NCBI RefSeq assembly: GCF_030388665.1
Contig: NZ_CP128846.1
Location: 744,001-808,000 of the forward strand
Source: Streptomyces flavofungini
GTDB lineage: Bacteria > Actinomycetota > Actinomycetes > Streptomycetales > Streptomycetaceae
Reading direction: 5' to 3'
DNA length: 64,000 bases
The translations under genes were made by a program, and so were the position numbers. The notes beneath the pieces are model-generated. The model did not search any database. It saw only the letters and a program-made list of their open reading frames with translations, and had not been told where the DNA came from. Below are positions 343-12,556 of the stretch, piece after piece. Each line of letters opens with the position of its first letter. The first letter of the stretch is position 1.

Positions 343-1848
343 TCAGCGCAGGTCGCTGCCGAAGAGCGCCGCGACGGACGGCGCCGCGAGGTCCTTGGGT
401 CCGAAGGCCACGGCGTTCGTGACGGTCAGGCCCGTGGAGGTGCCGCGCAGGGACCACAGGGCGCCCGCGTCGGCGTTCTCGTGGACGGAGGAGGCGGCGA
501 GGTCGCCGCGGCCGTCGCCGTTGACGTCGAGCAGGGCGGCGGCCGCGCCGAACCGGTCGTTCTTCTCGGCCACGCCGGGTACGCCCGCCGTGTTCTGGTG
601 GAAGGCCTGCGCGCCGGTGCCGGTCACGCCGGAGGCGCTGCCGCGGACGAGGACGACCAAGCCCGCGTCGGTGACGCTGCCCACGTCCTCGCCGGGGACG
701 CCGAGCGCGATGTCGGCGTAGCCGTCGCCGGTGACGTCGCCGACGGCGAGGGAGGCTCCGAAGAGGTCACCCTCCTCCTCGACGCCGGGCACGCCGGGCA
801 GGTCCTGGTCGAACTTCTGGACGGCGTCCTTCAGGCCGTTCGCGGAGCCGTAGGCGACCGTGACCTTGTTCGCCTCGTCCTCGGTGTTGCCGGACACCAC
901 GTCGTCGTACTTGTCGCCGTTGATGTCGCCGACCGCGACGGCGCCGCGCGAGCCGGGGGCGTCGCCACGGGTGAAGCCCTTGGGGCTGCCGTAGAGGACG
1001 CTGTTGCCCCACGAGCCGTCGCCGTAGTAGTCGTTCATGGCGATGTCGGCGCGGCCGTCGCCGTTGATGTCACCGACGGCCTGGGGGACGACCGGGCCCT
1101 TGACGGAGCTGGGTCCGTCCACGCAGACGTCGGGGTTCTGGATGCAGGCCGGGCTCGGGCGCTCGTCGTCGTCATAGCTCGACCACTGCGACTTCTCCAT
1201 GAAGTCGAGCGTGCCCGCGGGGGTGCCCGTGCGGGTCAGCGGGCCCTTCCAGAGCTTCGCCTTCTGGCCGACCGGGTCGTCGCCGTGGTAGGCGACTCCG
1301 GCGAACAGGGCCAGGTCGGTCTTGCCGTCGCCGTCGAAGTCGCCCGCCTGCGGGCGGAACCCGTAGGTGGCGATCTTCGTGCCGCCGGTCAGGCCGGACG
1401 CGGAGCCCCACAGGACCACCGCGCCCGCGCTGCCGGCCTGGCCGCCGGAGCCGATGACCAGGTCGGTGAAGCCGTCGCCGTCCAGGTCGCCCTTGGTGAA
1501 GGACCTGCCGAACTCCTGCTTGGTGGCGGCGGAACCGGGGACGCCGCTGGTCGAGCGGCTGATGATCTTCTTGTGGGCGGGGTCGAGGCCGTTCTTGGTG
1601 CCGTACGTCACCGCGACGTACCCGGCCTGCTTCTTGCCCGAGACGGTGGCGCCCGGAGCGCCGACCACCAGATCGGCGTACCCGTCGCCGTTGAAGTCGT
1701 CGGAGGCCTTGGCGGCGGCCTTCTTCGCGGTGGGGGCGGCGGCCTCGGCCCGATCCTGCCCGAGGGACCAGGCGGTGAACCCGCCCGTCAGCAGGAACGT
1801 GGCGATCAGAGGTGCGGTGAGTCGTACACGACGGCTTGCTCGCGACAT
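343..1848 (-). CDS. Secreted FG-GAP/VCBS repeat protein
   Basis: A 501-residue exported protein. A Sec-type signal occupies about residues 1-36 (basic SRASRR start, hydrophobic core, then SLGQDRAEA). The rest is a chain of about seven FG-GAP repeats, each with a calcium-binding loop of the form DxNGDGxxD (for example DFNGDGYADL, DLDGDGFTDL, DINGDGRADI, DVTGDGYADI, DVNGDGRGDL). Such repeats fold as a seven-bladed integrin-alpha-like propeller. One loop (DINGDKYDD) lacks the usual second glycine. No catalytic domain is visible, so a binding or scaffold role outside the cell is likely but unproven. The 186 bp upstream are left for its promoter; the next gene upstream is co-oriented. Confidence 0.85.
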   Translation of the reverse strand: MSRASRRVRLTAPLIATFLLTGGFTAWSLGQDRAEAAAPTAKKAAAKASDDFNGDGYADLVVGAPGATVSGKKQAGYVAVTYGTKNGLDPAHKKIISRSTSGVPGSAATKQEFGRSFTKGDLDGDGFTDLVIGSGGQAGSAGAVVLWGSASGLTGGTKIATYGFRPQAGDFDGDGKTDLALFAGVAYHGDDPVGQKAKLWKGPLTRTGTPAGTLDFMEKSQWSSYDDDERPSPACIQNPDVCVDGPSSVKGPVVPQAVGDINGDGRADIAMNDYYGDGSWGNSVLYGSPKGFTRGDAPGSRGAVAVGDINGDKYDDVVSGNTEDEANKVTVAYGSANGLKDAVQKFDQDLPGVPGVEEEGDLFGASLAVGDVTGDGYADIALGVPGEDVGSVTDAGLVVLVRGSASGVTGTGAQAFHQNTAGVPGVAEKNDRFGAAAALLDVNGDGRGDLAASSVHENADAGALWSLRGTSTGLTVTNAVAFGPKDLAAPSVAALFGSDLR

Positions 1849-2034: not shown

Positions 2035-2952
2035 TCAGCGCAGCGACCGGGCTTCCTCCTCGGTGACCGGCTCCCCTGCCGTCACCCCGTGCAGCACGTG
2101 GGCGAGCACTTCCGCGCCCCGCACGACGCGCGGCCCCGGCCGGTTGTAGTACGCCGGGCCGTCCAGGACCCAGACGCGCCCGTCCCGTACGGCGGGCAGC
2201 TCCGCCCAGCCCGGCAGCGCCTCCAGGAGCGCGCGTTCCCGCAGGGTGCGCTCCGGGCTGAACCCGCAGGGAAGGACGAGCACGACGTCCGGCTGGGCGG
2301 CGCGCACGGCCGCCCAGTCCATGGGCTCGGTGTGCTCGCCCGGGGCCGCGAGGAGGGGTTCGCCTCCGGCGCAGTCGATCTGTTCGGGCACCCAGTGCCC
2401 CGCGGGCCACAGTGGGTGCAGCCACTCGACGGCGACGGTACGCGGCCGGGGGCGCCCCCGGGTGAGGCGCCGCACCGTCGCGAGCCGTCGCCGCAGCTCC
2501 TCCCGGCGTGCGCGCGCGACCGCTCCGACACCGAGGAGGTCGCCGACACGGACGACGCAGTCCAGGACGTCGTCCAGGAGCCGCGGCTCCAGGCCGAGCA
2601 CCCGGGGCCCGTCGCCGTCGAGGACCCGTACGGCGTCGCGCACGCTCTCGTACGACACCGCGCACACGTCGCACAGGTCCTGGGTGAGCACCACGTCCGG
2701 GGCGGCCCTCGACAGCGCCGCGACGTCGAGGGTGTACAGCGAGGAGCCGTGGTGCCGGCCGCCGCCGACGGCCTCGGAGATCTCCCGGCTGCCGAGCTCG
2801 TCCGAGGAGAACCCGGCCGCGGTGACCACGGGCACGGCCGCCACCCGCGCGGGCGGCCAGTCGCACTCGTGGGTGCGGCCCACGAGGTCGTCCATGAGGC
2901 CGAGTTCGGCGACGATGTCGGTGGCCGCGGGGAGCAAGGAGACGATGCGCAT
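2035..2952 (-). CDS. BtuF-like cobalamin-binding protein without signal peptide
   Basis: A 305-residue protein of the periplasmic-binding helical-backbone family that includes BtuF. The N-terminus [17 protein letters not shown] and the SHECDWP-like segment (here THECDWPP) are typical of cobalamin-binding members. The C-terminal half has [11 protein letters not shown] and WLHPLWP-type segments seen in the same group. There is no signal peptide or lipobox, and an in-frame TGA lies 15 codon-bases upstream of the ATG, so no export signal can be added by moving the start. It is the last gene of the riboswitch-led operon, 36 bp after the ECF S component. A cytoplasmic corrinoid-binding or chaperone role is inferred. 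Confidence 0.75.
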
Positions 2953-2953
2953 G

Positions 2954-2992
2954 CCCCGACGGTACGTTCAGCTGCCCCGACCGCACGTTCAG
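2954..2992. repeat. 18-bp imperfect direct repeat
   Basis: Two copies (2954-2971 and 2975-2992) of an 18-bp unit differ at two positions and are separated by three bases. They fill the gap between the S-component stop codon and the BtuF-like start. The second copy includes the S-component stop. Function unknown. Confidence 0.6.
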
Positions 2993-3858
2993 GGGCCTCC
3001 GGGCGTCCCGTCCGCCGCGTCCGCCGCCGGGCCCGTGGCCGGTGCGAACCGGACCGGCGCCTGGAAGCGGGCCTTGCGGGCGGCCCGGCGGAAGACGGTG
3101 AGCACGGCCGGTCCCGCGAGCATGACGCAGACGAAGTTCGTCACGGCCCGGCCGGTGTCCCAGCCCAGCGACGTCGCGAGGTCGAAGGCGATGTAGCGCT
3201 GCCACTGCTCGGTGAAGGGCAGCCCGGGAAGGTAGGCGATGGAGCTGTTCGGGTCGAGGGAGAAGGGCCAGAAGGACAGGTTCAGGAGGAAGCCGAAGAG
3301 ATATCCGGACAGCGATCCGTACACCGCGAGCATCAGCACTTCGAGCCGTCCCGCGGCCCGTGGGAGCAGCCCGGCCAGCATGCCCACGAAGGCGCAGCCG
3401 AACATCTGGTACGGCATCCACGGTCCGACCCCGCCCGTGATGAGCGCCGACGCGAACAGCGACGTGCAGCCTAGGGTGAAGCCGAAGCCCGGCCCGTACA
3501 CGCGCCCGGCGAGCACGAGGATGAAGAAGACGGTCTCGATCCCGGCCGTCCCCGCCCCCAGGGGCCGGATCGCCGCGTTCACGGCGGAGAGCACCCCGAG
3601 CATCGCGAGGGCCTTGGAGTTGATGCCGCCCTCGGCGATCTCCGAGATCACCACGCACAGCACGAGGACGAGCAGCACGCCGAAGATGAGCAGGGGCGCG
3701 TACGTCGAGCCGAAGGTGCCGGGAGCGACCACGAACGGCCAGAAGAAGGCCACGACGCCGAGGAACGCGGCCATGGCGATGACGACCCCGGCGCGGGGGG
3801 TGATCCGGATCGCGGTGGTACGGATCGCGGCGGTACCGGGCCGCGCGCGCCCCCTCAC
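2989..3858 (-). CDS. ECF transporter S component (probable cobalamin)
   Basis: A 289-residue integral membrane protein with about six hydrophobic segments (for example PLLIFGVLLVLVLCVVIS, GIETVFFILVLAGRVYG and LMLAVYGSLSGYLFGFLLN). The topology and the pattern GFTLGCTSLFASALITGGVGPW fit the substrate-capturing S subunit of energy-coupling-factor importers found beside cobalamin genes in actinobacteria. The GTG start overlaps the stop of the ATPase gene by 4 nt (GTGA), giving translational coupling. Substrate is inferred from the riboswitch heading the operon and the BtuF-like neighbour, not from the protein alone; a cobalt or precursor substrate cannot be excluded. Confidence 0.75.
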   Translation of the reverse strand: MRGRARPGTAAIRTTAIRITPRAGVVIAMAAFLGVVAFFWPFVVAPGTFGSTYAPLLIFGVLLVLVLCVVISEIAEGGINSKALAMLGVLSAVNAAIRPLGAGTAGIETVFFILVLAGRVYGPGFGFTLGCTSLFASALITGGVGPWMPYQMFGCAFVGMLAGLLPRAAGRLEVLMLAVYGSLSGYLFGFLLNLSFWPFSLDPNSSIAYLPGLPFTEQWQRYIAFDLATSLGWDTGRAVTNFVCVMLAGPAVLTVFRRAARKARFQAPVRFAPATGPAADAADGTPGGP

Positions 3859-5615
3859 CGGTCGCCGCCCGCTTCGGCGTTCGTGCCCGCGGGCACCACC
3901 GACGCCGCGTCCCCCGTCGGCCCCGTCGGCCCCGCAGTCCCCCCGTCCGCCGCCAGTGCCGCCGACACCTGTTCCACCGTCAGATACGGCAGCGGCGCGA
4001 GCACCTTGGCCACCTGTGGCGCGAACACCGGTGAGGCGACGATGACTTCGGCGGCCGCACCGTCCGCGACGATCTCGCCCTCGGCCATCACGACGACCCG
4101 GTCGGCGGTCCGCGCGACGAACTCCACGTCGTGCGTGGACACCACGACCGCGCGCCCCTCGGCCGCCAGCTCGTCCAGGATCGCGGCGAGTTGGGCCTTG
4201 GCGCGGTAGTCGAGGCCGCGCGTCGGCTCGTCCAGGAGGACCACGCCGGGCGCGGCGGACAGCTGGATCGCGAGGACCAGGGCGAGCTTCTGGCCCTCGG
4301 ACAGGTCGCGGGGGTGTGTGGCGCCGTCGATGCCGGGGGCGAGGCGGTCCAGGACGGCGCGGGCCCGCGGCCCGTCGGCCACCGCCGACTCGGTGTCCGC
4401 CTGGTCGAGTTCCTGCCGCACACTCTCCAGGTAGAGCAGGTCCGTGGGGGTCTGCGGGACGAGCCCGACGAGGCGCCGGGCCTCGACGGCGGGAACGGCG
4501 CCCGGATCGCGGGAGCCGCCCTCCTTGCCGGGCGCCGCCCCGGACGGCGCCGCCCCGAACGGAACCACCCGCACCGTCCCGTCCGTCCGTGTCCCCGACC
4601 CCTGGAGCGCCCACAGCAACGACGACTTCCCGGAGCCGTTGCGGCCCATCAGGGCGGTCGTCTCGCCGCCGCGCAGCTCCACGTCGGCCGCACGGACGGC
4701 GGGCAGGGCCTGGCCCCGGTAGCGGACGCTGACGCCCCGCGCGTCGAGGAGCCGGGGCTGGCCGGCCGCGGGAGCCGGGGGCCTGGCGGCGGGGACGGGC
4801 GCCCCGGCGAGGCGGGTGCGCAGCGGTGCGGCGGCGCGGCGGGCGTCGCGGACCGACAGGGGCAGCGGCGTCCAGTCGGCGCGGCGGCCGAGTTCCACCA
4901 CCGGCGGGGCGATGGTGGTGGTGCGGAAGATGTCGGCGGGCGGCCCGGAGACCACCCGGCCGTCGCCCGGCAGGTGCAGGACGCGGTCGGCGTACTGCAC
5001 GACCCGCTCCAGGCGGTGCTCGGCGAGCAGGACGGTGACCCCGAGGTCGTGCACGAGCCGGGTGATCGCCGCGAGGACCTCCTCGGCGGCCGTCGGGTCC
5101 AGGGCGGAGGTGGGCTCGTCCAGGACCAGGACGCGCGGGTGGGCGGTCAGGACGGAGCCGATCGCGACGCGCTGCTGCTGGCCGCCGGACAGCTCGTGCA
5201 GGGCGCGGTGGCGCAGGTCGGCGAGGCCGAGCAGGTCCAGGGTCTCCTCGACGCGCTTGCGCATGGTGGCGGGCGGCACCGCCAGCTGCTCCATGGCGTA
5301 GGCGAGTTCCTCCTCCACGGTGTCCGTGACGAAGCCGTCGAGGGGGTCCTGGCCCACCACGCCGACGACGTCGGCGAGTTCCCTGGGCGGGTGCCCCGCG
5401 GTGTCGCGGCCGTCCACGGTGACCGTCCCGTACAGGGTGCCGCCGGTGAAGTGCGGGACCAGTCCGTTGACCGCGCCGAGGAGGGTGGACTTGCCGACGC
5501 CGGTGTGGCCGACGACGAGGCAGAGTTCGCCCTCCTCCACGGTGAGGTCGACGTCGCGCAGGACGGGGTCGACGGTGTCGTCGTACTGGACGCTGACGTG
5601 GTCGAAGGTGATCAC
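3855..5615 (-). CDS. ECF transporter ATPase, two fused ATP-binding domains
   Basis: A 586-residue cytoplasmic protein with two ABC domains in one chain, equivalent to EcfA1 plus EcfA2. Domain 1 has Walker A GHTGVGKST (about residues 36-44), signature LSGGQQQR (143-150) and Walker B VLVLDEPTSALD. Domain 2 has Walker A GRNGSGKSS (324-332), a variant signature LSEGQKLALV in which the second glycine is glutamate, and Walker B VVLLDEPTRGLD. It powers uptake by the T and S components encoded on either side. The GTG start overlaps the EcfT stop by 4 nt. A longer open frame exists upstream, but it only shadows the EcfT gene. Confidence 0.9.
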   Translation of the reverse strand: MITFDHVSVQYDDTVDPVLRDVDLTVEEGELCLVVGHTGVGKSTLLGAVNGLVPHFTGGTLYGTVTVDGRDTAGHPPRELADVVGVVGQDPLDGFVTDTVEEELAYAMEQLAVPPATMRKRVEETLDLLGLADLRHRALHELSGGQQQRVAIGSVLTAHPRVLVLDEPTSALDPTAAEEVLAAITRLVHDLGVTVLLAEHRLERVVQYADRVLHLPGDGRVVSGPPADIFRTTTIAPPVVELGRRADWTPLPLSVRDARRAAAPLRTRLAGAPVPAARPPAPAAGQPRLLDARGVSVRYRGQALPAVRAADVELRGGETTALMGRNGSGKSSLLWALQGSGTRTDGTVRVVPFGAAPSGAAPGKEGGSRDPGAVPAVEARRLVGLVPQTPTDLLYLESVRQELDQADTESAVADGPRARAVLDRLAPGIDGATHPRDLSEGQKLALVLAIQLSAAPGVVLLDEPTRGLDYRAKAQLAAILDELAAEGRAVVVSTHDVEFVARTADRVVVMAEGEIVADGAAAEVIVASPVFAPQVAKVLAPLPYLTVEQVSAALAADGGTAGPTGPTGDAASVVPAGTNAEAGGDR

Positions 5616-6811
5616 TTGGCGGTGGCTTTCTCGGATCGCCGGGCCGACGTGCGCGGGGCGGCCTGCGGGGCGGGGGTGGGCAGCGGCGGGGGCGCGAGGA
5701 ATCCGGCGGCGCCCGCGAGCAGGATCGCCGCCGCCGGGACCAGCGGCAGCGTGGGCCAGCTCAACGGGTAGAGGGACGGGTTGAGTTCGGCCGCGTCGAA
5801 GCCCACGTTGGTGAACAGGAGCACGGCGGAGAGCACCCCGCAGGCGGCGACGGCCCACTCTTCGAACCGCCACGGGTCGGGCCGGTAGGCGGTCCGGGTG
5901 ACGCGCCGCCCGCCGAGCCGCAGCCCCGCCACGCACAGCACCGCCCCGGCCGCGAGCGCGGGCAGCCCGAGGAACGCGGGCGTGGAGGCGTCGAGCAGTC
6001 CGTAGGCGCCGGCGCACAGGCCGCACATGCCGAGCAGCATCAGCGCCCCGGTCAGCCGCCGGGATGCCTTCGTGGCGCTGCCCGCCCTGCCGTAGCCGCG
6101 CGAGTCCATGGCGGCCGCCAGGCGCAGCGAACGCTCCAGGGCGTCCTCCAGGACGGGCACGACGATGCCGCGCAGGGCCCGCAGCCCCTTGGTGCGGCCC
6201 GCGCGCAGGCGCCGGGCGCGGTGCACGCGCTGCACGCTCTGCACGAGTTGCGGGGCGACGCTGATCGACACGGTGACGGCGACGCCGAGTTCGTACAGCG
6301 CGCCGGGCAGGACGCGCAGCGCCCGCTTGGGGTTGGCGAGGGTGTTCGCGGCGCCCACACAGCACAGCATGCAGGCGAGCCGGAGCCCGTCGATGGCGGC
6401 CGAGAGCACGGCCTCCAGGGAGACGGGCCCGCCGAGCTGGATGCCCGCGTACCAGTCGGGCGTGGGGATGTGCGGCAGGGAGAACAGGAAGTGGTCGTGG
6501 GGCGTGATGCCGGTGGCGAAGACGGCCCGGAACACGACGCGGATCGCGACGACGGTGAGCGCCAGGTACAGGTAGTACTTGAAGCCGCGCGCCCACGGCG
6601 CCTCGGTGCGGCGCATGCCGATCACGTAGCCGAGGACGGCGAGGACGAGGAACAGCAGCAGCGGGTTGTTGGTGCGGCTCACGGCGGTGGCGAGCGCGAG
6701 CGCCCACACCCACCAGGCCAGCGGGTGCAGGGTGCGCGGCAGCCGACGCTCGTCCGCGCCCGGCAGGACACCGGGCGCGGGCGGACGTGCGGTGGCGGTA
6801 CGGAGGCGCAC
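5612..6811 (-). CDS. ECF transporter T component (EcfT)
   Basis: A 399-residue membrane protein with several transmembrane segments at the N-terminus and more at the C-terminus. Between them lies a cytoplasmic coupling region that contains the alanine-arginine-glycine-type motifs of EcfT proteins (ANPKRALRVLP and, about 100 residues later, AAMDSRGYGR). These coupling helices contact the ATPase. The C-terminal extension with extra hydrophobic segments (WAVAACGVLSAVLLF, LVPAAAILLAGAAGFL) is longer than in the shortest EcfT proteins. The GTG start lies 2 nt after the stop of the preceding surface-protein gene, so the two are co-transcribed. Confidence 0.88.
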   Translation of the reverse strand: MRLRTATARPPAPGVLPGADERRLPRTLHPLAWWVWALALATAVSRTNNPLLLFLVLAVLGYVIGMRRTEAPWARGFKYYLYLALTVVAIRVVFRAVFATGITPHDHFLFSLPHIPTPDWYAGIQLGGPVSLEAVLSAAIDGLRLACMLCCVGAANTLANPKRALRVLPGALYELGVAVTVSISVAPQLVQSVQRVHRARRLRAGRTKGLRALRGIVVPVLEDALERSLRLAAAMDSRGYGRAGSATKASRRLTGALMLLGMCGLCAGAYGLLDASTPAFLGLPALAAGAVLCVAGLRLGGRRVTRTAYRPDPWRFEEWAVAACGVLSAVLLFTNVGFDAAELNPSLYPLSWPTLPLVPAAAILLAGAAGFLAPPPLPTPAPQAAPRTSARRSEKATAK

Positions 6812-6813
6812 TC

Positions 6814-7779
6814 CTACTCCGTACGACGGCGACGCTTGGCCGCGTACGCGCCCGCGCCGCCGACCAGCAGCACCAGGGCGCCGGTGAGGGCGGCCGGTAC
6901 GTACGAGCCCGCGTCGTGGTCGGCGTCGGCGGCCGGGGCGGCGTCGACGACCTCGGCGGACGGGCTCGGCGCGGCCTTCGCCTCACCGGAACCCGCCGAC
7001 GGCGAGGGCTTCTCGGTGGCGGAGGGCGAAGGCGACTTGTCACGCCCCGACTTCGCCTCTTCCTTCTCCTTCTTGCCCTTCTCGCCCTGCTCGTCCTTTT
7101 TGGGCTTCTTGGGCTTCGGAGCGGGCTTCTCCGTCACGGGCCGCTCGGGGGCGGGGCCGGTGTCGACGCCGGGCGGCAGCGGCTTCGCGGTCTTCGTCTG
7201 GTGCGGGGCGGGAGCCTTGCCGCCGACGGGTCGGGTGTTGCGGGCACGCAGCTGGTTCGGGCTGACCGTCGGGCGGCCCTTGGTCCCCTCGATGTTGGTG
7301 CCGCCGAAGATCCACAGGTCGACGCTGCCCGGCTTGGGCTTGTAGAGCATGGCGCCGAGCTGGCTGTACTCCCAGGTGTTCTCGCCCGGATCGGCGTGCC
7401 AGTACGACCAGTAGGCGGTGGCGGGCGGGGTGAGGACGCAGTCGTCCTGCGCGGGCGTGGGGAACTGCTTGCCGCCCTTGTAGCCGCTGTAGCCGATGCG
7501 GCAGATGAACGCGGGGCCGTCGTGGCCGGTGCCGGTGGTGCGCCAGCCACCCTGGTTGAGCAGTTCGTAGCCGGTGGTCGGCGTGGTGCCGCAGGACCGC
7601 AGGATCGGTCCGCCCCAGTCGCTGAAGTCGACGGCGAGCACCGCCCCGGACGTCGTGGTGCACTGCCCGATGGGCCGGGGCGCGGCGGCGGCCTGCCCGG
7701 CGGTGGCGGCGAGCGCGCCCCCGGTCAGGGCGAGGGCGGCGGCCGCGCTCAGGGCGGTGCGCAGGAGGCGGCGGATCAC
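6814..7779 (-). CDS. Membrane-anchored surface protein of the cobalamin operon
   Basis: A 321-residue exported protein. It has a signal peptide (IRRLLRT, then a hydrophobic core ending in AAAAPRP) and an extracellular domain of about 150 residues with four conserved cysteines. A long Lys/Glu/Pro/Ser-rich stalk follows, then a C-terminal transmembrane helix and RRRR stop-transfer. No LPxTG-like motif precedes the helix. The extracellular domain is a paralogue of the N-terminal domain of the upstream gene: both have TPTTGY, GPAFICR and LTPPATAYWSYW. The GTG start at 7779 overlaps the upstream stop by 4 nt; the longer frame to 7845 would place 22 basic residues before the signal peptide. A corrinoid-handling role at the membrane is inferred from the operon. 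Confidence 0.7.
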   Translation of the reverse strand: MIRRLLRTALSAAAALALTGGALAATAGQAAAAPRPIGQCTTTSGAVLAVDFSDWGGPILRSCGTTPTTGYELLNQGGWRTTGTGHDGPAFICRIGYSGYKGGKQFPTPAQDDCVLTPPATAYWSYWHADPGENTWEYSQLGAMLYKPKPGSVDLWIFGGTNIEGTKGRPTVSPNQLRARNTRPVGGKAPAPHQTKTAKPLPPGVDTGPAPERPVTEKPAPKPKKPKKDEQGEKGKKEKEEAKSGRDKSPSPSATEKPSPSAGSGEAKAAPSPSAEVVDAAPAADADHDAGSYVPAALTGALVLLVGGAGAYAAKRRRRTE

Positions 7780-10604
7780 CGGCTGCCTCCCGCGAGTCCG
7801 CCGCGACGGCGGGCGACGACGAGGGTGCGCCAGCCCGCGAGGCACAGAACGACGGCTGCCAGGGCGAGTCCCGTCACCTGGGCACCGGTCGAGGCGAGCG
7901 GGCCGGTCGGGCTGTCCCCGGCTGTGCCGTCGCCCGGGCCGCCGCCGGGGGTGACGATGTCGGTGTCGCCGCTCCCACCGTCGCCGGGTGCCTGCGACGG
8001 GTCGTCCGACGACGAGCCGGGAGGCTGCGGCCGGGTGCCGTCCAGGTCGCGTACGAGCGTGCCGAAGGAGGTGCCGATGGCGCCGCCGAGCGCCTGCGTC
8101 GAGGCCCGGACGTCCGAGCCGCGCTGCCCGCCTGCCGCCACGTTGAAGCCGCCGTCCCGGTTCTGCTGCCTGGCCAGGAACTTGCGGGCCTTCTTGATCT
8201 GCGCCTTGTACTTCGGGGCGTCCAGGGACAGGCCCTGGACCGCGAGGGCCGCGGAGTTGACGGAGTCACCGGACGCGCCCGGGAACCCGCCGCTGCGCAG
8301 CTGCTTGGACGCGATCCACTTCAGGGCTTTGGTGACGGCCTTCTCGGAACGGGTGTCACCGGCCAGGTCCAGGGCCATCGCGGCCATCGCGGTGGAGTCC
8401 ACCTCGGAGTCACCGGTCGGCGGAATGAGGCTCGGCCAGGCGCCGGAGGACTTCTGCAGGCTCCGCAGGTATGTGAGCGGGGCCGCCGCCGCGCGCTTCT
8501 CGCCCGCGCGCAGCTGCGCGATGACGGCGAGGGACTGCGAGAACACCGAAGGGGCGTACCGGTAGGCGCCCTTGGCCGCGCAGCTGCGGTCCGCGCCCTG
8601 GCTCTTCTTCTTGCACACGGCCTTGCCGAGCGCCGCGATCAGGTCGTGCCCGGAGAAGTCGCGCGGGTCGCGGCCGACGGCCTGGGCGAGCACCGCGACC
8701 TTGCCGATGGAGCCCCCGGCCGCGTGCGACGTGCCCACGCCCGTCCAGTCGTTGACGGTGCGCCGCCCTGAGCTGGCGTCCTTGCCCTCGCCGTCGAGGA
8801 AGTCGACGATCCCGCGCAGCTTGTTGTTGTTCGTGCCCGTGGCGGCCAGCGCGTAGGCGCCGTCGATGGTCAGGCCGTAGTCGGCGAAGCCGGTCCCGGC
8901 GACGTTCTCGTAGTAGTGGCCCTTCTTCAGCCGGGAGCCCGCCGTGAGGTAGGCGGTGCCCTTCTTCAGATCGGGGCCCTCGCCCGCGCGCCACGGCGGT
9001 TTCACGCCGGAGGTCGGCGGCTTCACCGGGTCGGGACGTGGAGGACCCGTGGGGTCGACGGGTGGCTTCGTCGGGTCGACGGGCGGCTTGGTCTGGTCGG
9101 GGCGCTTGGTGGTGAGCGCGGCCAGGCTGGTGCGGGCGCCCGCGAACGCGGCGGCCCAGGTCGGGAAGATCGCCGGGTCGGTGGCGCCCTCGTCGGACCC
9201 GAAGCCGCCGGACTTGGTCTGCTGCCGCGACAGCCAGGACACGGCGGCGTCCGCGCGCACGGTGTCGCCGAGGAGCCGCATCGCCTGGGCGGACCTGGCG
9301 GTGGCGGTGACGTCCCCGGTGGTCACGCCGGGGTAGGCGGCGACGGCGCCGGTGGGGAGCTGGGCGCCGCGCAGGTTCTTGCGGGCCTTCGCCACGGCGT
9401 CGGCGTGGCCGCCCGCCTGCTGGAGAGCGAGAGTCGCGTACGGGGTCGTGGCGGGGTCGCTGTAGGAGCAGGTGTCGCCGTCCCGCATCAGCGTCGGGCT
9501 GAAGCCGCCGTCCTTGCACTGGTGGGCGGCGACGCGGGCGACGGCGTCGGCGGGGATCTTCCGGCCCGCGCGGTGCAGCGCGAGCACGGCGAGTGCCTGG
9601 GTCTCCACGTCGCCGACGGCCGGGAAGTCGCCCTTGGCGACGCAGTCGGCGGTGCCGCCCGTGGTGCACACGCTTCGGCCGAGGTCACCGGCGAGGTTGT
9701 GGCCGCCGAAGGAGTGCGGGTCGCCCTCGGTGCTCTCGGCGAGGAGCGCGAGCAGGGCCGCGCCCAGCGGGCTCGGGGCCTTGTCCGTGCCCTGCGGGTA
9801 GGCGAACTCCTCGGTGCGCGCGGCGAGGTAGGACTTCATCCGGTCGAGGGTGGCGCTGCGGCCGCCGGTGGCCGCGAGGGCGAGGGCGGTGTGCGCCGTC
9901 TGGTAGAGGTTGGCGTTCTCGGCGCCCTCGTCGCGGACGTGGTCGCCGTCGGAGAGCCGGCCCCTCAGCCAGGCGTCCGCGCCCTTCAGGTCGACCTTGC
10001 CGGGCTTGACGTCCGGCGGGTTGTCCCCGGGGTCGGTCTGGCCGCCCGCGCGCACCTGGGCGGGGGTGAACGTGGGGCCGCCGCTGGTGCCGTCGGGGTC
10101 GGTGGCGCCGAACACCCAGGCCTCGACGGAGCCGTTCTTCGGCTTCTGGCTCATCGCGCCGAGGGGGCTGTAGGTCCAGTAGTCCTGCCCCGGCGGGGCG
10201 ATCCAGTACGACCAGTAGGCGGTGGCGGGCGGAGTGAGCTTGCACTTCTCCTGGGTCGGAGTCGGGTACTGCTTGCCGGAGTTGAACTTCTTGTGCCCGA
10301 GGCGGCAGATGAACGCGGGGCCGTCGTGCTCGGTGCCCTCGGTGCTGAACCCGGCCTCGTGCAGCAGGTCGTAGCCCGTCGTCGGCGTGGCGTCGCAGCC
10401 GCGCACCACGCCGCCGCCCCAGTCGGCGAAGTCCACCGCGACGACCGCGCCCTTGGTGCGGGTGCAGGAGCTCATCGGATCGGCCGCGGCGGGAGTGGCC
10501 GGGCCGAGCAGCAGGACGCCGCCGCCCAGCGCCGTCGCGGCCGCGCAGAGCAGCGCGATACCTCTCGTGCGTATGCTCCGGACCCGTCCGGTTCCCTGCC
10601 CCAC
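7776..10604 (-). CDS. Sortase-anchored double alpha/alpha-barrel protein, transcobalamin-like
   Basis: A 942-residue surface protein and first gene of the operon. Order of parts: signal peptide (1 to about 41); a four-cysteine domain (about 45-185) shared with the next gene; and a first alpha/alpha-barrel (about 200-500) with repeated helix pairs such as YQTAHTALALAATG and VETQALAVLALHRAG. A proline-rich linker with PVDPTKPPVDPT repeats leads to a second barrel (about 550-860) with the QNRDGGF prenyltransferase/squalene-cyclase-type turn. The C-terminal signal is LASTG at 903-907, then a hydrophobic helix and RRR. LAxTG is the class E sortase motif of actinobacteria. Databases may label it prenyltransferase or terpene cyclase, but it lacks cyclase DxDD motifs. 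The barrel is also the fold of the corrinoid-binding alpha domain of intrinsic factor and transcobalamin, which fits the B12 riboswitch in its leader. Confidence 0.72.
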   Translation of the reverse strand: MGQGTGRVRSIRTRGIALLCAAATALGGGVLLLGPATPAAADPMSSCTRTKGAVVAVDFADWGGGVVRGCDATPTTGYDLLHEAGFSTEGTEHDGPAFICRLGHKKFNSGKQYPTPTQEKCKLTPPATAYWSYWIAPPGQDYWTYSPLGAMSQKPKNGSVEAWVFGATDPDGTSGGPTFTPAQVRAGGQTDPGDNPPDVKPGKVDLKGADAWLRGRLSDGDHVRDEGAENANLYQTAHTALALAATGGRSATLDRMKSYLAARTEEFAYPQGTDKAPSPLGAALLALLAESTEGDPHSFGGHNLAGDLGRSVCTTGGTADCVAKGDFPAVGDVETQALAVLALHRAGRKIPADAVARVAAHQCKDGGFSPTLMRDGDTCSYSDPATTPYATLALQQAGGHADAVAKARKNLRGAQLPTGAVAAYPGVTTGDVTATARSAQAMRLLGDTVRADAAVSWLSRQQTKSGGFGSDEGATDPAIFPTWAAAFAGARTSLAALTTKRPDQTKPPVDPTKPPVDPTGPPRPDPVKPPTSGVKPPWRAGEGPDLKKGTAYLTAGSRLKKGHYYENVAGTGFADYGLTIDGAYALAATGTNNNKLRGIVDFLDGEGKDASSGRRTVNDWTGVGTSHAAGGSIGKVAVLAQAVGRDPRDFSGHDLIAALGKAVCKKKSQGADRSCAAKGAYRYAPSVFSQSLAVIAQLRAGEKRAAAAPLTYLRSLQKSSGAWPSLIPPTGDSEVDSTAMAAMALDLAGDTRSEKAVTKALKWIASKQLRSGGFPGASGDSVNSAALAVQGLSLDAPKYKAQIKKARKFLARQQNRDGGFNVAAGGQRGSDVRASTQALGGAIGTSFGTLVRDLDGTRPQPPGSSSDDPSQAPGDGGSGDTDIVTPGGGPGDGTAGDSPTGPLASTGAQVTGLALAAVVLCLAGWRTLVVARRRGGLAGGSR

Positions 10605-10724
10605 CGCTGCCCCCTGGGCGTCAGCCGCGGCGGGCGTCCGCGTGGTGGCAGGCCCGGGGCCGGGGCCCGCGTGGAGAAACCGTCCGTACCACGCCGTAGT
10701 CCGCGACGGCGTCGATCGCTTGCC

Positions 10725-10830
10725 CTCAGTCCAGGTAATCCGGCTCGCCCGCCGGGCACTTGAGGTGCTCGGCGAACCTACGGTTGCGGGTCAGCGCCGG
10801 ACTTCGACCGGCTTCCCCTGATGACTGAGC
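10725..10830 (-). ncRNA. Cobalamin riboswitch (leftward)
   Basis: Read on the minus strand, this leader contains GGGGAAGCCGGTCGAAGTCC (from 10820), then the hairpin closing CCGGC, then GCTGACCCGCAACCGT. These are the conserved core and P5-type hairpin of cobalamin riboswitches. A B12-box-like element GAGCCGGATTACCTGGAC follows at about 10746-10729. It lies about 120 nt upstream of the GTG at 10604, in the position expected to control the ECF/transcobalamin-like operon. Boundaries are approximate; the family match is strong. Confidence 0.88.
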
Positions 10831-10889
10831 TTGGAATCGGCCGAATTAGAGCACAGTTGCGAATGTGGTGGCAAGGGGGTGTGCGGGTT

Positions 10890-11010
10890 GTGTGTGCTTC
10901 GAGTACCGTCCTGTGCTGCCGATCGGGGGAATCTGGTGCGAACCCAGAGCTGACGCGCAGCGGTGTGGACCGGCAGGGAGCCGGGCCGAGCCCGAATGCC
11001 CGAACGGTCA
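10890..11010 (+). ncRNA. Cobalamin riboswitch (rightward)
   Basis: On the plus strand, 10925-10966 reads GGGAATCTGGTGCGAACCCA followed by GAGCTGACGCGCAGCGGTG, the conserved cobalamin riboswitch core, with the P5-type hairpin TCTGG/CCAGA. A weaker B12-box-like segment, GAGCCCGAATGCCCG, follows at about 10988-11002. The element precedes the secreted barrel protein at 11138 by about 130 nt. It is back to back with the leftward riboswitch. The 3' boundary and the expression platform were not resolved. Confidence 0.83.
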
Positions 11011-11137
11011 AGCGTCAATGGACGTCGACCCCACGCGCTCGGGCGACGGCCGCGTGTCGTCCGGCTCGGGTCCGCGCACAGGGGACCGGCCGCGGGGTAC
11101 GTGAGGCCGCCGCCCCCTCATCCCGGGAGCCCCCGAC

Positions 11138-12556
11138 ATGACCTCGCCCCGTGCCGCCCGCCGCACCCTGCTCGCCGTGCCCACCGCCCTAGGCGCGGTG
11201 GGCGCCCTCGTCCTGACCGCGCTTCCCGCGGCCGCCACCGCCACGCCCGGCCAGATAGCCACGTCCAGGACGAACGGCGTGAGCTATCTCAGATCCCTGC
11301 AGGGCGCCGACGGTTCGTACGCGGGCGCGGGCCTGTCCAACGAGTGGGCGTTCTCCGCGTTCGCCTCGGCGGGCACGGCGGCCGCCGACGTCAGCCCCGG
11401 CGGCGACACCTCCAAGAACGCCCGCACCGTCTACCGCGCCCACCTGGCGGCGCCGGGCTGGCCGGGCACCTCGCCGGTCGTCACCGACTACGAACGCGGC
11501 ATCATCAACGCCTACTCCGCGGGCATCGACCCGGCCCGCGTGTCGGCGAGCCGCAACCTGGTCGCGGACACCTACGCGCACTGGCAGCACTCCGCACCCG
11601 GCTACTGGGGTTCGCCGTCCAACTTCAACGGCACGGTCTTCGCGCTGATCTCGCTCGGCGGCGCCAAGACCCGGTCCGGCGCCCAGCGGGTGCCGCAGGC
11701 CCTGCTGGACCGGTCCGTGGCCACGGTCCGCGCCAACCAGCACAACGACGGCGGCTGGGACTTCAGCAGGGCCGAGGGCGACCCCGACGCGCTCGCCAAG
11801 CCCGGTGACATCGACATGACCGGCGCCGCGATGGCCTCCCTGTGCGTGTCCGGGGTGCCCGCGAGCGACCCCGCCATCACCAAGGCACGGGCCTTCCTGA
11901 AGTCGAAGCTCATCAACAACTCCGGTGCCTTCGCCGCCATGTTCGGCGCCAACACCGACTCCAACGGCTGGGCCGTCTCGGGCCTCAACGCCTGCGGCAT
12001 CAACCCGCAGACCGGCGACTTCCTCACGCCCGCGGGCAAGACCCCGGTGGACTTCCTCATCGCCCAGCAGTTCAAGCCGGGCGGCGGCTTCAAGTACCAG
12101 CCGACCGACACCACGCCGTCCGCGTACGCCTCCATCGACGGTCTGCGGGCCGTGGCCGGGGGCGGCTTCATCGCGGCACCGCCGACCCCGACGACGGCGG
12201 GCGCGTCCCGTTGGGCCGCCACCGCCGACTTCACGCCGGGCACCGCGACCAGCCTCGCGCTGACCGTCGACGACGGCACCTCGCTGAAGGTCTGCTCCGT
12301 CGCCTTCACCCCGACCGCGAAGACCACCACGCTCGGCGCCGTCCTGGACGCCGCGTCCTCCTCGGCCACCCCGGCCGGCTGCGTCACGTCCGTCACGCCG
12401 GGCAGCGGCACCGGCACGATCACGGCCCTCAACGGCAAGGCCAACAGCGGCGGTTCGACGTGGAAGGCGAGCGTCGACGGCGCCGGCGCCTCGACCGCCA
12501 CGCGGAACAAGGAGATCAAGCTCGGCGACACGATCTCGCTGCGCTACGGCAGCTGA
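11138..12556 (+). CDS. Secreted transcobalamin-like protein (alpha-barrel plus beta domain)
   Basis: A 472-residue secreted protein. The signal peptide spans about residues 1-34 (ends ALPAAATA). Residues about 38-345 form an alpha/alpha-barrel with helix-pair repeats and glycine-rich turns (SLQGADGSYAG, HNDGGWDFS, FKPGGGFKY). Residues about 356-472 form a separate beta domain with two cysteines. That domain ends in GSTWKASVDG and LGDTISLRYGS, which resembles the DUF4430/transcobalamin C-terminal domain. The barrel plus small beta domain is the architecture of intrinsic factor and transcobalamin, which bind B12 between the two domains. It is monocistronic behind its own cobalamin riboswitch and has no anchor, so it may be a released B12 scavenger. 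Cobalamin binding is inferred, not shown. Confidence 0.75.
   Translation: MTSPRAARRTLLAVPTALGAVGALVLTALPAAATATPGQIATSRTNGVSYLRSLQGADGSYAGAGLSNEWAFSAFASAGTAAADVSPGGDTSKNARTVYRAHLAAPGWPGTSPVVTDYERGIINAYSAGIDPARVSASRNLVADTYAHWQHSAPGYWGSPSNFNGTVFALISLGGAKTRSGAQRVPQALLDRSVATVRANQHNDGGWDFSRAEGDPDALAKPGDIDMTGAAMASLCVSGVPASDPAITKARAFLKSKLINNSGAFAAMFGANTDSNGWAVSGLNACGINPQTGDFLTPAGKTPVDFLIAQQFKPGGGFKYQPTDTTPSAYASIDGLRAVAGGGFIAAPPTPTTAGASRWAATADFTPGTATSLALTVDDGTSLKVCSVAFTPTAKTTTLGAVLDAASSSATPAGCVTSVTPGSGTGTITALNGKANSGGSTWKASVDGAGASTATRNKEIKLGDTISLRYGS

What the first reader, a model, noticed from the sequence alone, without database searches (positions are those of the whole stretch)
2035..12556. Intrinsic-factor-like B12 capture system coupled to an ECF importer
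Seen: a rightward secreted protein has an alpha/alpha-barrel followed by a small beta domain. A leftward operon starts with a sortase-anchored double-barrel protein and continues with a second surface protein, EcfT, a fused EcfA, an S component and a BtuF-like protein. Both transcripts begin with a cobalamin riboswitch core. Known: intrinsic factor and transcobalamin bind B12 between an alpha6/alpha6 barrel and a beta domain, and ECF importers take up vitamins. Inference: these proteins form an extracellular bind-and-hand-off relay for corrinoids in a Gram-positive cell, with a released scavenger, a wall-anchored receptor, a membrane-anchored stalk protein and an importer. Such barrel proteins are usually labelled prenyltransferase or terpene cyclase, so the role may be widely missed.
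Basis: partly seen in the sequence, partly recalled or inferred. Interest (0 to 1): 0.85.

Follow-up and report, generated by a model that had tools for sequence, protein, structure and literature searches.

The report
Bacterial transcobalamin-like vitamin B12 capture system
A Streptomyces gene cluster with vitamin B12 riboswitches encodes a secreted protein predicted to be shaped like our own B12 carriers, beside surface proteins and a membrane importer, so it probably scavenges B12-type molecules, though no binding has been measured.

The parts
11138..12556 (+). Secreted transcobalamin-like protein (472 aa): signal-like N-terminus (by eye), alpha/alpha toroid (about residues 35-350), C-terminal beta domain (about 367-472), no anchor seen
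10926..11001 (+). Cobalamin riboswitch core (RF00174) ahead of the secreted protein
   Evidence: 32.1 bits against 31.5; conserved, with some covarying pairs, in 21 loci
10713..10864 (-). Cobalamin riboswitch (RF00174) ahead of the leftward operon
   Evidence: 27.1 bits, below the cut-off of 31.5; conserved, with some covarying pairs, in 21 loci
7776..10604 (-). Wall-anchored surface protein (942 aa): N-terminal domain shared with the next gene, two alpha/alpha toroids, LASTG sortase-type motif and membrane helix
6814..7779 (-). Membrane-anchored stalk protein (321 aa from the coupled GTG): the shared N-terminal domain, charged proline-rich stalk, C-terminal hydrophobic helix, no LAxTG motif seen
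5612..6811 (-). EcfT transmembrane coupling protein (CbiQ family)
   Evidence: PF02361, 44.5 against 25 bits
3855..5615 (-). Fused double EcfA ATPase (586 aa)
   Evidence: PF00005 in two stretches, 151.8 bits; best NCBIfam matches are ECF ATPases, below their cut-offs; start read
2989..3858 (-). Putative ECF S component (289 aa), no assigned family
   Evidence: operon position; homologue beside EcfA in 20 of 20 loci and in 17 of 20 distant ones (in two the contig ends before it, one has no ECF genes); weak FolT-family similarity in 14 of 19 homologues; no related PDB sequence up to E 10
2035..2952 (-). BtuF-like protein without a signal peptide; last gene of the run but not part of the conserved array
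   Evidence: PF01497; PDB hit 5ysc vitamin B12-binding protein, E 7.9e-7; in 2 of 27 arrays as fetched, 14 of 56 with wider flanks

Best explanation
This is a cobalamin (corrinoid) acquisition system of actinobacteria, made when B12 is scarce. Two divergent B12 riboswitches control it (that they shut genes off when B12 is plentiful is recalled for this riboswitch family). A soluble transcobalamin-like protein is secreted and most likely clamps a corrinoid between its toroid and its beta domain, as transcobalamin does. A wall-anchored protein with two toroids and a membrane-anchored protein sharing its N-terminal domain hold or pass on the corrinoid at the cell surface. A dedicated ECF transporter (S component, EcfT, fused EcfA) imports it. 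Shown here by computation: the conserved array, the paired riboswitches, the predicted fold of the secreted protein, the anchor motifs and the EcfT/EcfA genes. Inferred: ligand binding, the order of hand-off, the identity of the S component and corrinoid as its substrate.
Confidence: 0.73

Rival explanations
1. Same machine, other cargo: the system takes up incomplete corrinoids (cobinamide), foreign cobamides or a cobalt complex rather than cobalamin itself.
For: EcfT belongs to the CbiQ cobalt-transport family; a cobalt transporter gene (CbtA) also lies behind such a riboswitch in this genome; the genome already has a riboswitch-led BtuF-like protein and a second ECF system.
Against: A transcobalamin-type toroid plus beta domain is large for a cobalt ion (inference); no CbiM or CbiN match among the seven proteins scanned.
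Confidence: 0.14
2. The secreted protein serves to withhold or store corrinoids (against competitors or for the colony) and does not feed the importer beside it.
For: No anchor is seen; it has a separate transcript with its own riboswitch; the ECF operon occurs without it (G163 and G560; distant actinobacteria); in one Actinacidiphila locus it stands behind a riboswitch and a small DUF4430 relative with no ECF genes within 9.5 kb (L190).
Against: In 295 genomes of the genus it is not found full-length without the surface-domain gene; two genomes without that gene hold only fragments of it (G635, G640).
Confidence: 0.1
3. The toroid proteins are secreted prenyltransferases or terpene cyclases, as databases name them.
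For: Pfam and NCBIfam matches; cyclase structures rank first for the double-toroid protein.
Against: The class II motif DxDD (recalled) is absent in 121 of 121 listed members of the secreted family, where an invariant DxDM stands (53 of 53 aligned); the double-toroid family has DSTA after a near-invariant V there (62 of 62 aligned), though a D.DD string occurs somewhere in 9 of its 121, once as D.DDT. Export, anchoring and riboswitches do not fit.
Confidence: 0.03

Closest known systems
Bacterial SLBB/toroid surface systems with CbiO and CbiQ genes (Burroughs et al. 2007, PMC1796856; abstract, passages and part 1 of 2 of section 7 read)
   Same: Secreted toroid plus transcobalamin-like beta-grasp domain, Gram-positive anchors, more than one surface protein per operon, CbiO/CbiQ genes, predicted B12 scavenging.
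   Different: Described for low-GC Gram-positives, planctomycetes and euryarchaea; the words Streptomyces and riboswitch do not occur in that main text. Here: actinobacteria, paired B12 riboswitches, an extra double-toroid wall protein, and a different shared surface domain.
Animal transcobalamin, intrinsic factor and haptocorrin
   Same: Domain order and predicted domain folds of the secreted protein.
   Different: No sequence match found; the predicted placement of the two domains differs; binding unproven; works beside an ECF importer, not an endocytic receptor (receptor route recalled).
ECF-CbrT cobalamin transporter of Lactobacillus delbrueckii (PMC5997447; passages read)
   Same: ECF architecture with EcfT, EcfA and an S component; proposed substrate.
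   Different: Own ECF module with fused EcfA; S component without a related PDB sequence up to E 10; surface proteins added.
SCO2321/SCO2322 families of NCBIfam
   Same: Toroid membrane protein beside ECF genes and a B12 riboswitch; the window's genome has a true SCO2321 member elsewhere (599.7 against 300 bits).
   Different: The window's proteins fall far below both cut-offs (114 of 300; 24.4 of 85 bits) and form a second, expanded system.

Membership tests
Transcobalamin/intrinsic factor type carriers | alpha/alpha toroid followed by a beta-grasp domain of the transcobalamin type | tested here: met
Transcobalamin/intrinsic factor type carriers | sequence match to Pfam Cobalamin_bind (PF01122) | tested here: inconclusive
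   no match listed for the secreted protein; 12.1 bits (cut-off 25) for the double-toroid protein
Transcobalamin/intrinsic factor type carriers | binds cobalamin between the two domains | not testable with these tools
   needs purified protein
DUF4430 (PF14478) | score at or above the curated cut-off of 23.8 bits | tested here: inconclusive
   17.1 bits in the window's protein; 25.5 in an 82% identical orthologue; 30 of 53 family members at E up to 0.1
SLBB/toroid systems of Burroughs et al. | surface toroid/beta proteins, a Gram-positive anchor, CbiO and CbiQ genes together | tested here: met
   the beta domain rests on the fold match
SLBB/toroid systems of Burroughs et al. | second surface protein of the operon has an SLBB domain | tested here: inconclusive
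   shared N-domain: no profile relation; stand-alone DUF4430 relatives do occur in related loci
SLBB/toroid systems of Burroughs et al. | host usually lacks B12 synthesis genes | not tested
   not searched in this genome; a review table lists S. coelicolor and S. griseus as aerobic producers (PMC8123684, passage)
ECF transporter | EcfT and two EcfA domains | tested here: met
ECF transporter | S component | tested here: inconclusive
   position and conservation fit; only weak family matches
CbrT-type S component | sequence relation to the solved CbrT | tested here: inconclusive
   19-sequence profile: the only chain up to E 10 is unrelated
Cobalamin riboswitch RF00174, + strand copy | score at or above the gathering score 31.5 | tested here: met
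   32.1 bits
Cobalamin riboswitch RF00174, - strand copy | score at or above the gathering score 31.5 | tested here: not met
   27.1 bits in the window; orthologous copies pass in 5 of 20 loci; core conserved with some covariation
Class II terpene cyclase | DxDD motif (recalled) | tested here: not met
   0 of 121 listed members of the secreted family
BtuF-type extracytoplasmic binding protein | signal or lipoprotein peptide | tested here: not met
   longest open frame starts at [13 protein letters not shown]; read by eye, no signal predictor was available
SCO2321 family (NF053823) | score at or above 300 | tested here: not met
   114 bits for the double-toroid protein

The most novel reading that the evidence does not exclude
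The domain shared by the two surface proteins (found in 38 of 103 sampled genera of the class, and beside EcfT in 19 of 20 loci fetched) is a second, unrecognised corrinoid clamp that replaces the transcobalamin beta domain. Two Thermoleophilia loci put a DUF4430-like protein in the matching operon position. Actinobacteria would then run a modular toroid-plus-clamp relay: released, wall-bound and membrane-bound carriers pass B12 inward to an ECF importer, and animal intrinsic factor would be one descendant of a much larger bacterial toolkit.
Probability: 0.3. Interest if true: 0.82.

Novelty: new variant of a known kind. Interest (0 to 1): 0.62.

Why it matters
How B12 crosses the thick wall of Gram-positive bacteria is poorly known (my knowledge of the field). 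This locus gives an ordered set of candidates in soil bacteria that can be engineered, with riboswitch evidence that the 2007 prediction did not have. It makes the proposed bacterial origin of intrinsic factor and transcobalamin directly testable, and it would correct many 'prenyltransferase/terpene cyclase' annotations.

Tried and rejected
Cyclase or prenyltransferase reading: rejected on the missing DxDD motif, export and riboswitches. BtuF-like protein as part of the relay: rejected (2 of 27 arrays as fetched; 14 of 56 named loci of at least 20 kb; no signal peptide). Shared surface domain as a recognisable transcobalamin beta domain: not supported by hhalign, also with a more diverse alignment; the low-confidence model shows strand-strand-helix then strands, compatible with a beta-grasp but no evidence for one. 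S component as CbrT by sequence: nothing found. Promoters and terminators in the intergenic stretch: none by consensus scan. In one search no transcobalamin chain is among the 50 rows shown for the double-toroid protein, though Foldseek lists them from rank 29. PDB sequence searches with the secreted family (E up to 1) and its beta domain (E up to 10) found no transcobalamin. A loose riboswitch pattern (four errors) was too noisy as a control, 37 matches elsewhere in 552,870 bases; stricter ones were used.

Rows dropped: four partial matches (G459, G635, G640, G658) from the count of 28 full-length genes, and a second weak match in G436; 15 distant surface-domain matches from the count of 30 close ones. 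The 27 arrays include G556, where the double-toroid gene lies in two reading frames. The 20 distant loci come from 19 of the 62 matching genomes, mostly the best-scoring. Of 746, 304 and 900 homologues the tools listed 120 each; A1 holds 52 of its 120 plus the query, A2 61 of its 120 plus the query. The 121-member count for the double-toroid family includes the window's own protein twice (P0129). Two riboswitch loci of the genome (L006, L007) gave no clear downstream gene.
Full report
WHAT IS THERE. The window lies in a genome of 9.36 Mb, taken as Streptomyces from its closest relatives (96% identity to S. alboflavus in the secreted protein); 'the genus' below means that unnamed draw. Right of a divergent intergenic stretch is a 472-residue protein with a signal-like N-terminus, a toroid and a small C-terminal domain, without a visible anchor. 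Left of it run a 942-residue protein (7776-10604), a second surface protein (6814-7779), EcfT (5612-6811), a fused EcfA (3855-5615), a putative S component (2989-3858) and a BtuF-like protein (2035-2952). From the first gene to the S component the genes overlap or lie within a few bases; the BtuF-like gene follows after 36 bases. Starts at 7779, 5615 and 3858 are mine, read from coupled GTG codons.

RIBOSWITCHES. Rfam finds the cobalamin riboswitch on the + strand at 10926-11001 (32.1 bits, cut-off 31.5) and on the - strand at 10864-10713 (27.1 bits, below it). I tested conservation first in 20 of the 28 full-length loci. At the gathering cut-off the copy ahead of the secreted gene is found in 18 of 20 and the copy ahead of the operon in 5 of 20 (positions compared). 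A core pattern allowing errors finds both copies in 20 of 20 and in the window, each with at most one error. With four errors the pattern gave 37 matches elsewhere in 552,870 bases, too many for a control; with at most one error there are 43 matches in 555,040 bases (both strands), 40 in the intergenic stretch and 3 at other Rfam riboswitches. Alignments show compensatory changes in 3 of 23 and 6 of 24 predicted pairs; the sequences are related, so this is modest support. The window's genome has 11 RF00174 matches, 10 above the cut-off; genes downstream of others are metE, an aldehyde dehydrogenase, a BtuF-like protein with a lipoprotein-like start (by eye), CbtA, a ribonucleotide reductase large chain and an SCO2321 toroid protein, fitting company for B12 riboswitches. 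The HMGL-like gene of L010 lies about 550 bases away and is uncertain; L006 and L007 gave no clear gene.

CONSERVATION. In 295 genomes of the genus 32 match the secreted protein, 28 of them full-length. In the same draw 45 match the shared domain, 30 closely; all 28 are among the 30, the other two being G163 and G560. I fetched the surroundings of all 28: all six parts A-F in 20 of 20, in the window and in G407, G461, G473, G487, G569 and G656; in G405 the array is broken up. That is 27 of 28, all with both riboswitch cores; in G556 the double-toroid gene lies in two reading frames. The BtuF-like gene is in 2 of these 27 as fetched, the window and L058. Across the class the shared domain is found in 62 of 246 genomes and 38 of 103 genera. 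In 20 loci fetched from 19 of those 62 genomes, mostly the best-scoring, it lies beside EcfT in 19, with EcfA in 18 and the S homologue in 17; two contigs end before them and one locus has no ECF genes. Of 17 of these 20 loci searched with Rfam, 9 have a cobalamin riboswitch above the cut-off near the operon (L098, L100, L101, L102, L104, L105, L107, L111, L114), L103 has one on the other strand close by, and 7 have none. A named scan found 76 loci of the secreted family, mostly Streptomyces, with Kitasatospora, Actinacidiphila, Micromonospora, Dactylosporangium and, from the class Thermoleophilia, Solirubrobacter and Patulibacter. Allowing two errors, the core is within 700 bases upstream in 73 of 76 and the opposite-strand core is present in 70; of 56 loci of at least 20 kb, 50 hold C, EcfT, EcfA and S. 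The control outside that stretch, 32 matches in 2,032,032 bases, some of them beside small DUF4430 relatives and probably real, predicts about one chance match in 76 stretches. L144, L190 and L211 lack the core: L144 and L211 are collapsed copies, and in L190 an Rfam riboswitch about 850 bases upstream leads a small DUF4430 relative and then the secreted gene, with no ECF genes within 9.5 kb.

SPLIT FORMS. In G234 and G089 the order is surface-domain protein, EcfT, EcfA, S, one anchored toroid protein, then a small DUF4430 protein with a signal-like start: transcobalamin's two parts as separate genes. Relatives of this small protein stand in five further loci examined (L123, L132, L133, L135, L137) and in L125, and in 25 of 56 named loci; in L123, L125 and L137 a riboswitch core lies ahead of it. 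In the two Thermoleophilia loci looked at gene by gene (L213, L216, of five) the divergent operon begins with a DUF4430-like protein (18.4 and 18.3 bits, below the cut-off of 23.8) followed by a toroid membrane protein, and in Patulibacter a CbiQ gene. This is the strongest hint that the shared Streptomyces domain stands in for the beta domain.

MECHANISM. Best reading: low B12 releases both riboswitches; the secreted carrier collects corrinoid outside; the wall-bound double toroid and the membrane-bound stalk protein hold it near the membrane; the ECF transporter imports it. Binding and hand-off are inference. The BtuF-like protein may act in the cytosol or be unrelated.

KNOWN AND NEW. Burroughs et al. 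2007 (abstract, passages and part 1 of section 7 read) predicted such SLBB/toroid scavenging operons with CbiO/CbiQ genes in Firmicutes and others and proposed transfer to animals. Their main text has no riboswitch and no Streptomyces. ECF-CbrT is a proven cobalamin importer in Lactobacillus (PMC5997447, passages). My searches for SCO2321/SCO2322, DUF4430 with and without cobalamin, transcobalamin-like bacterial proteins, CbrT/CbrUV, and riboswitch plus surface, squalene or uptake terms showed no description of this actinobacterial system in the titles, abstract starts and passages I saw; the lists were capped and the library lacks most subscription papers, among them the ECF comparative genomics paper of 2009 and the Streptomyces nrdABS riboswitch paper. 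PMC4991794 (passages) describes HbpS, another secreted Streptomyces protein that binds aquo-cobalamin, an unrelated case.

CHANGES AFTER CHECKING. The control for the two-error pattern, the taxonomy and the frame of the G556 gene were added; the confidence was lowered by 0.01 and one rival raised by 0.01 for the L190 counter-example and the sub-threshold DUF4430 scores.

Noticed in passing
G000:C1:6635610-6641497 (L139:7611-13498): The same genome holds a second, canonical system: riboswitch, an SCO2321 toroid membrane protein (599.7 against 300 bits), and EcfT, EcfA and S at 51, 57 and 49% identity to the window's.
   Followed up: partly
L102:15051-15533 +; L103, L123, L125, L132, L133, L135, L137: Small relatives of the transcobalamin beta domain (DUF4430) with a signal-like start stand alone, three of them behind a riboswitch core of their own.
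   Followed up: partly
L190:8538-10907 +: In Actinacidiphila a riboswitch leads a small DUF4430 relative and then the secreted protein, with no ECF genes within 9.5 kb.
   Followed up: no
L126 and L127 (G405): The array is split by a rearrangement inside the double-toroid gene; the halves lie about 650 kb apart and no close EcfT, EcfA or S match was found beside either.
   Followed up: no
L129 (G635), L130 (G640), L144, L211: Decayed or collapsed copies of the array: fragments of the secreted gene or of its neighbours, in L130 with part of a toroid gene and of the BtuF-like and small DUF4430 genes.
   Followed up: no
L067 (G556): The double-toroid gene matches in two pieces in different reading frames; a real break or a sequence error.
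   Followed up: no
L098 (G163) and L128 (G560): Here the surface domain and a single toroid seem to be separate genes on one strand, each with a riboswitch or core ahead, divergent from the second surface gene and the ECF genes.
   Followed up: no
L117:3200-4306 +: A CbiM-like protein (by its start, recalled; not scanned) lies near a distant relative of the ECF operon.
   Followed up: no
L104:7733-11377 -: A 1214-residue relative joins the surface domain, an immunoglobulin-like domain and a toroid in one chain.
   Followed up: no
window 11138-11240: Several homologues of the secreted protein begin with SRR-type twin arginines; export by the Tat route, possibly already loaded, is a thought not tested.
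   Followed up: no
window 343-1848 -: Downstream of the BtuF-like gene is a repeat protein with a signal-like start that looks FG-GAP-like (recalled label, not scanned).
   Followed up: no
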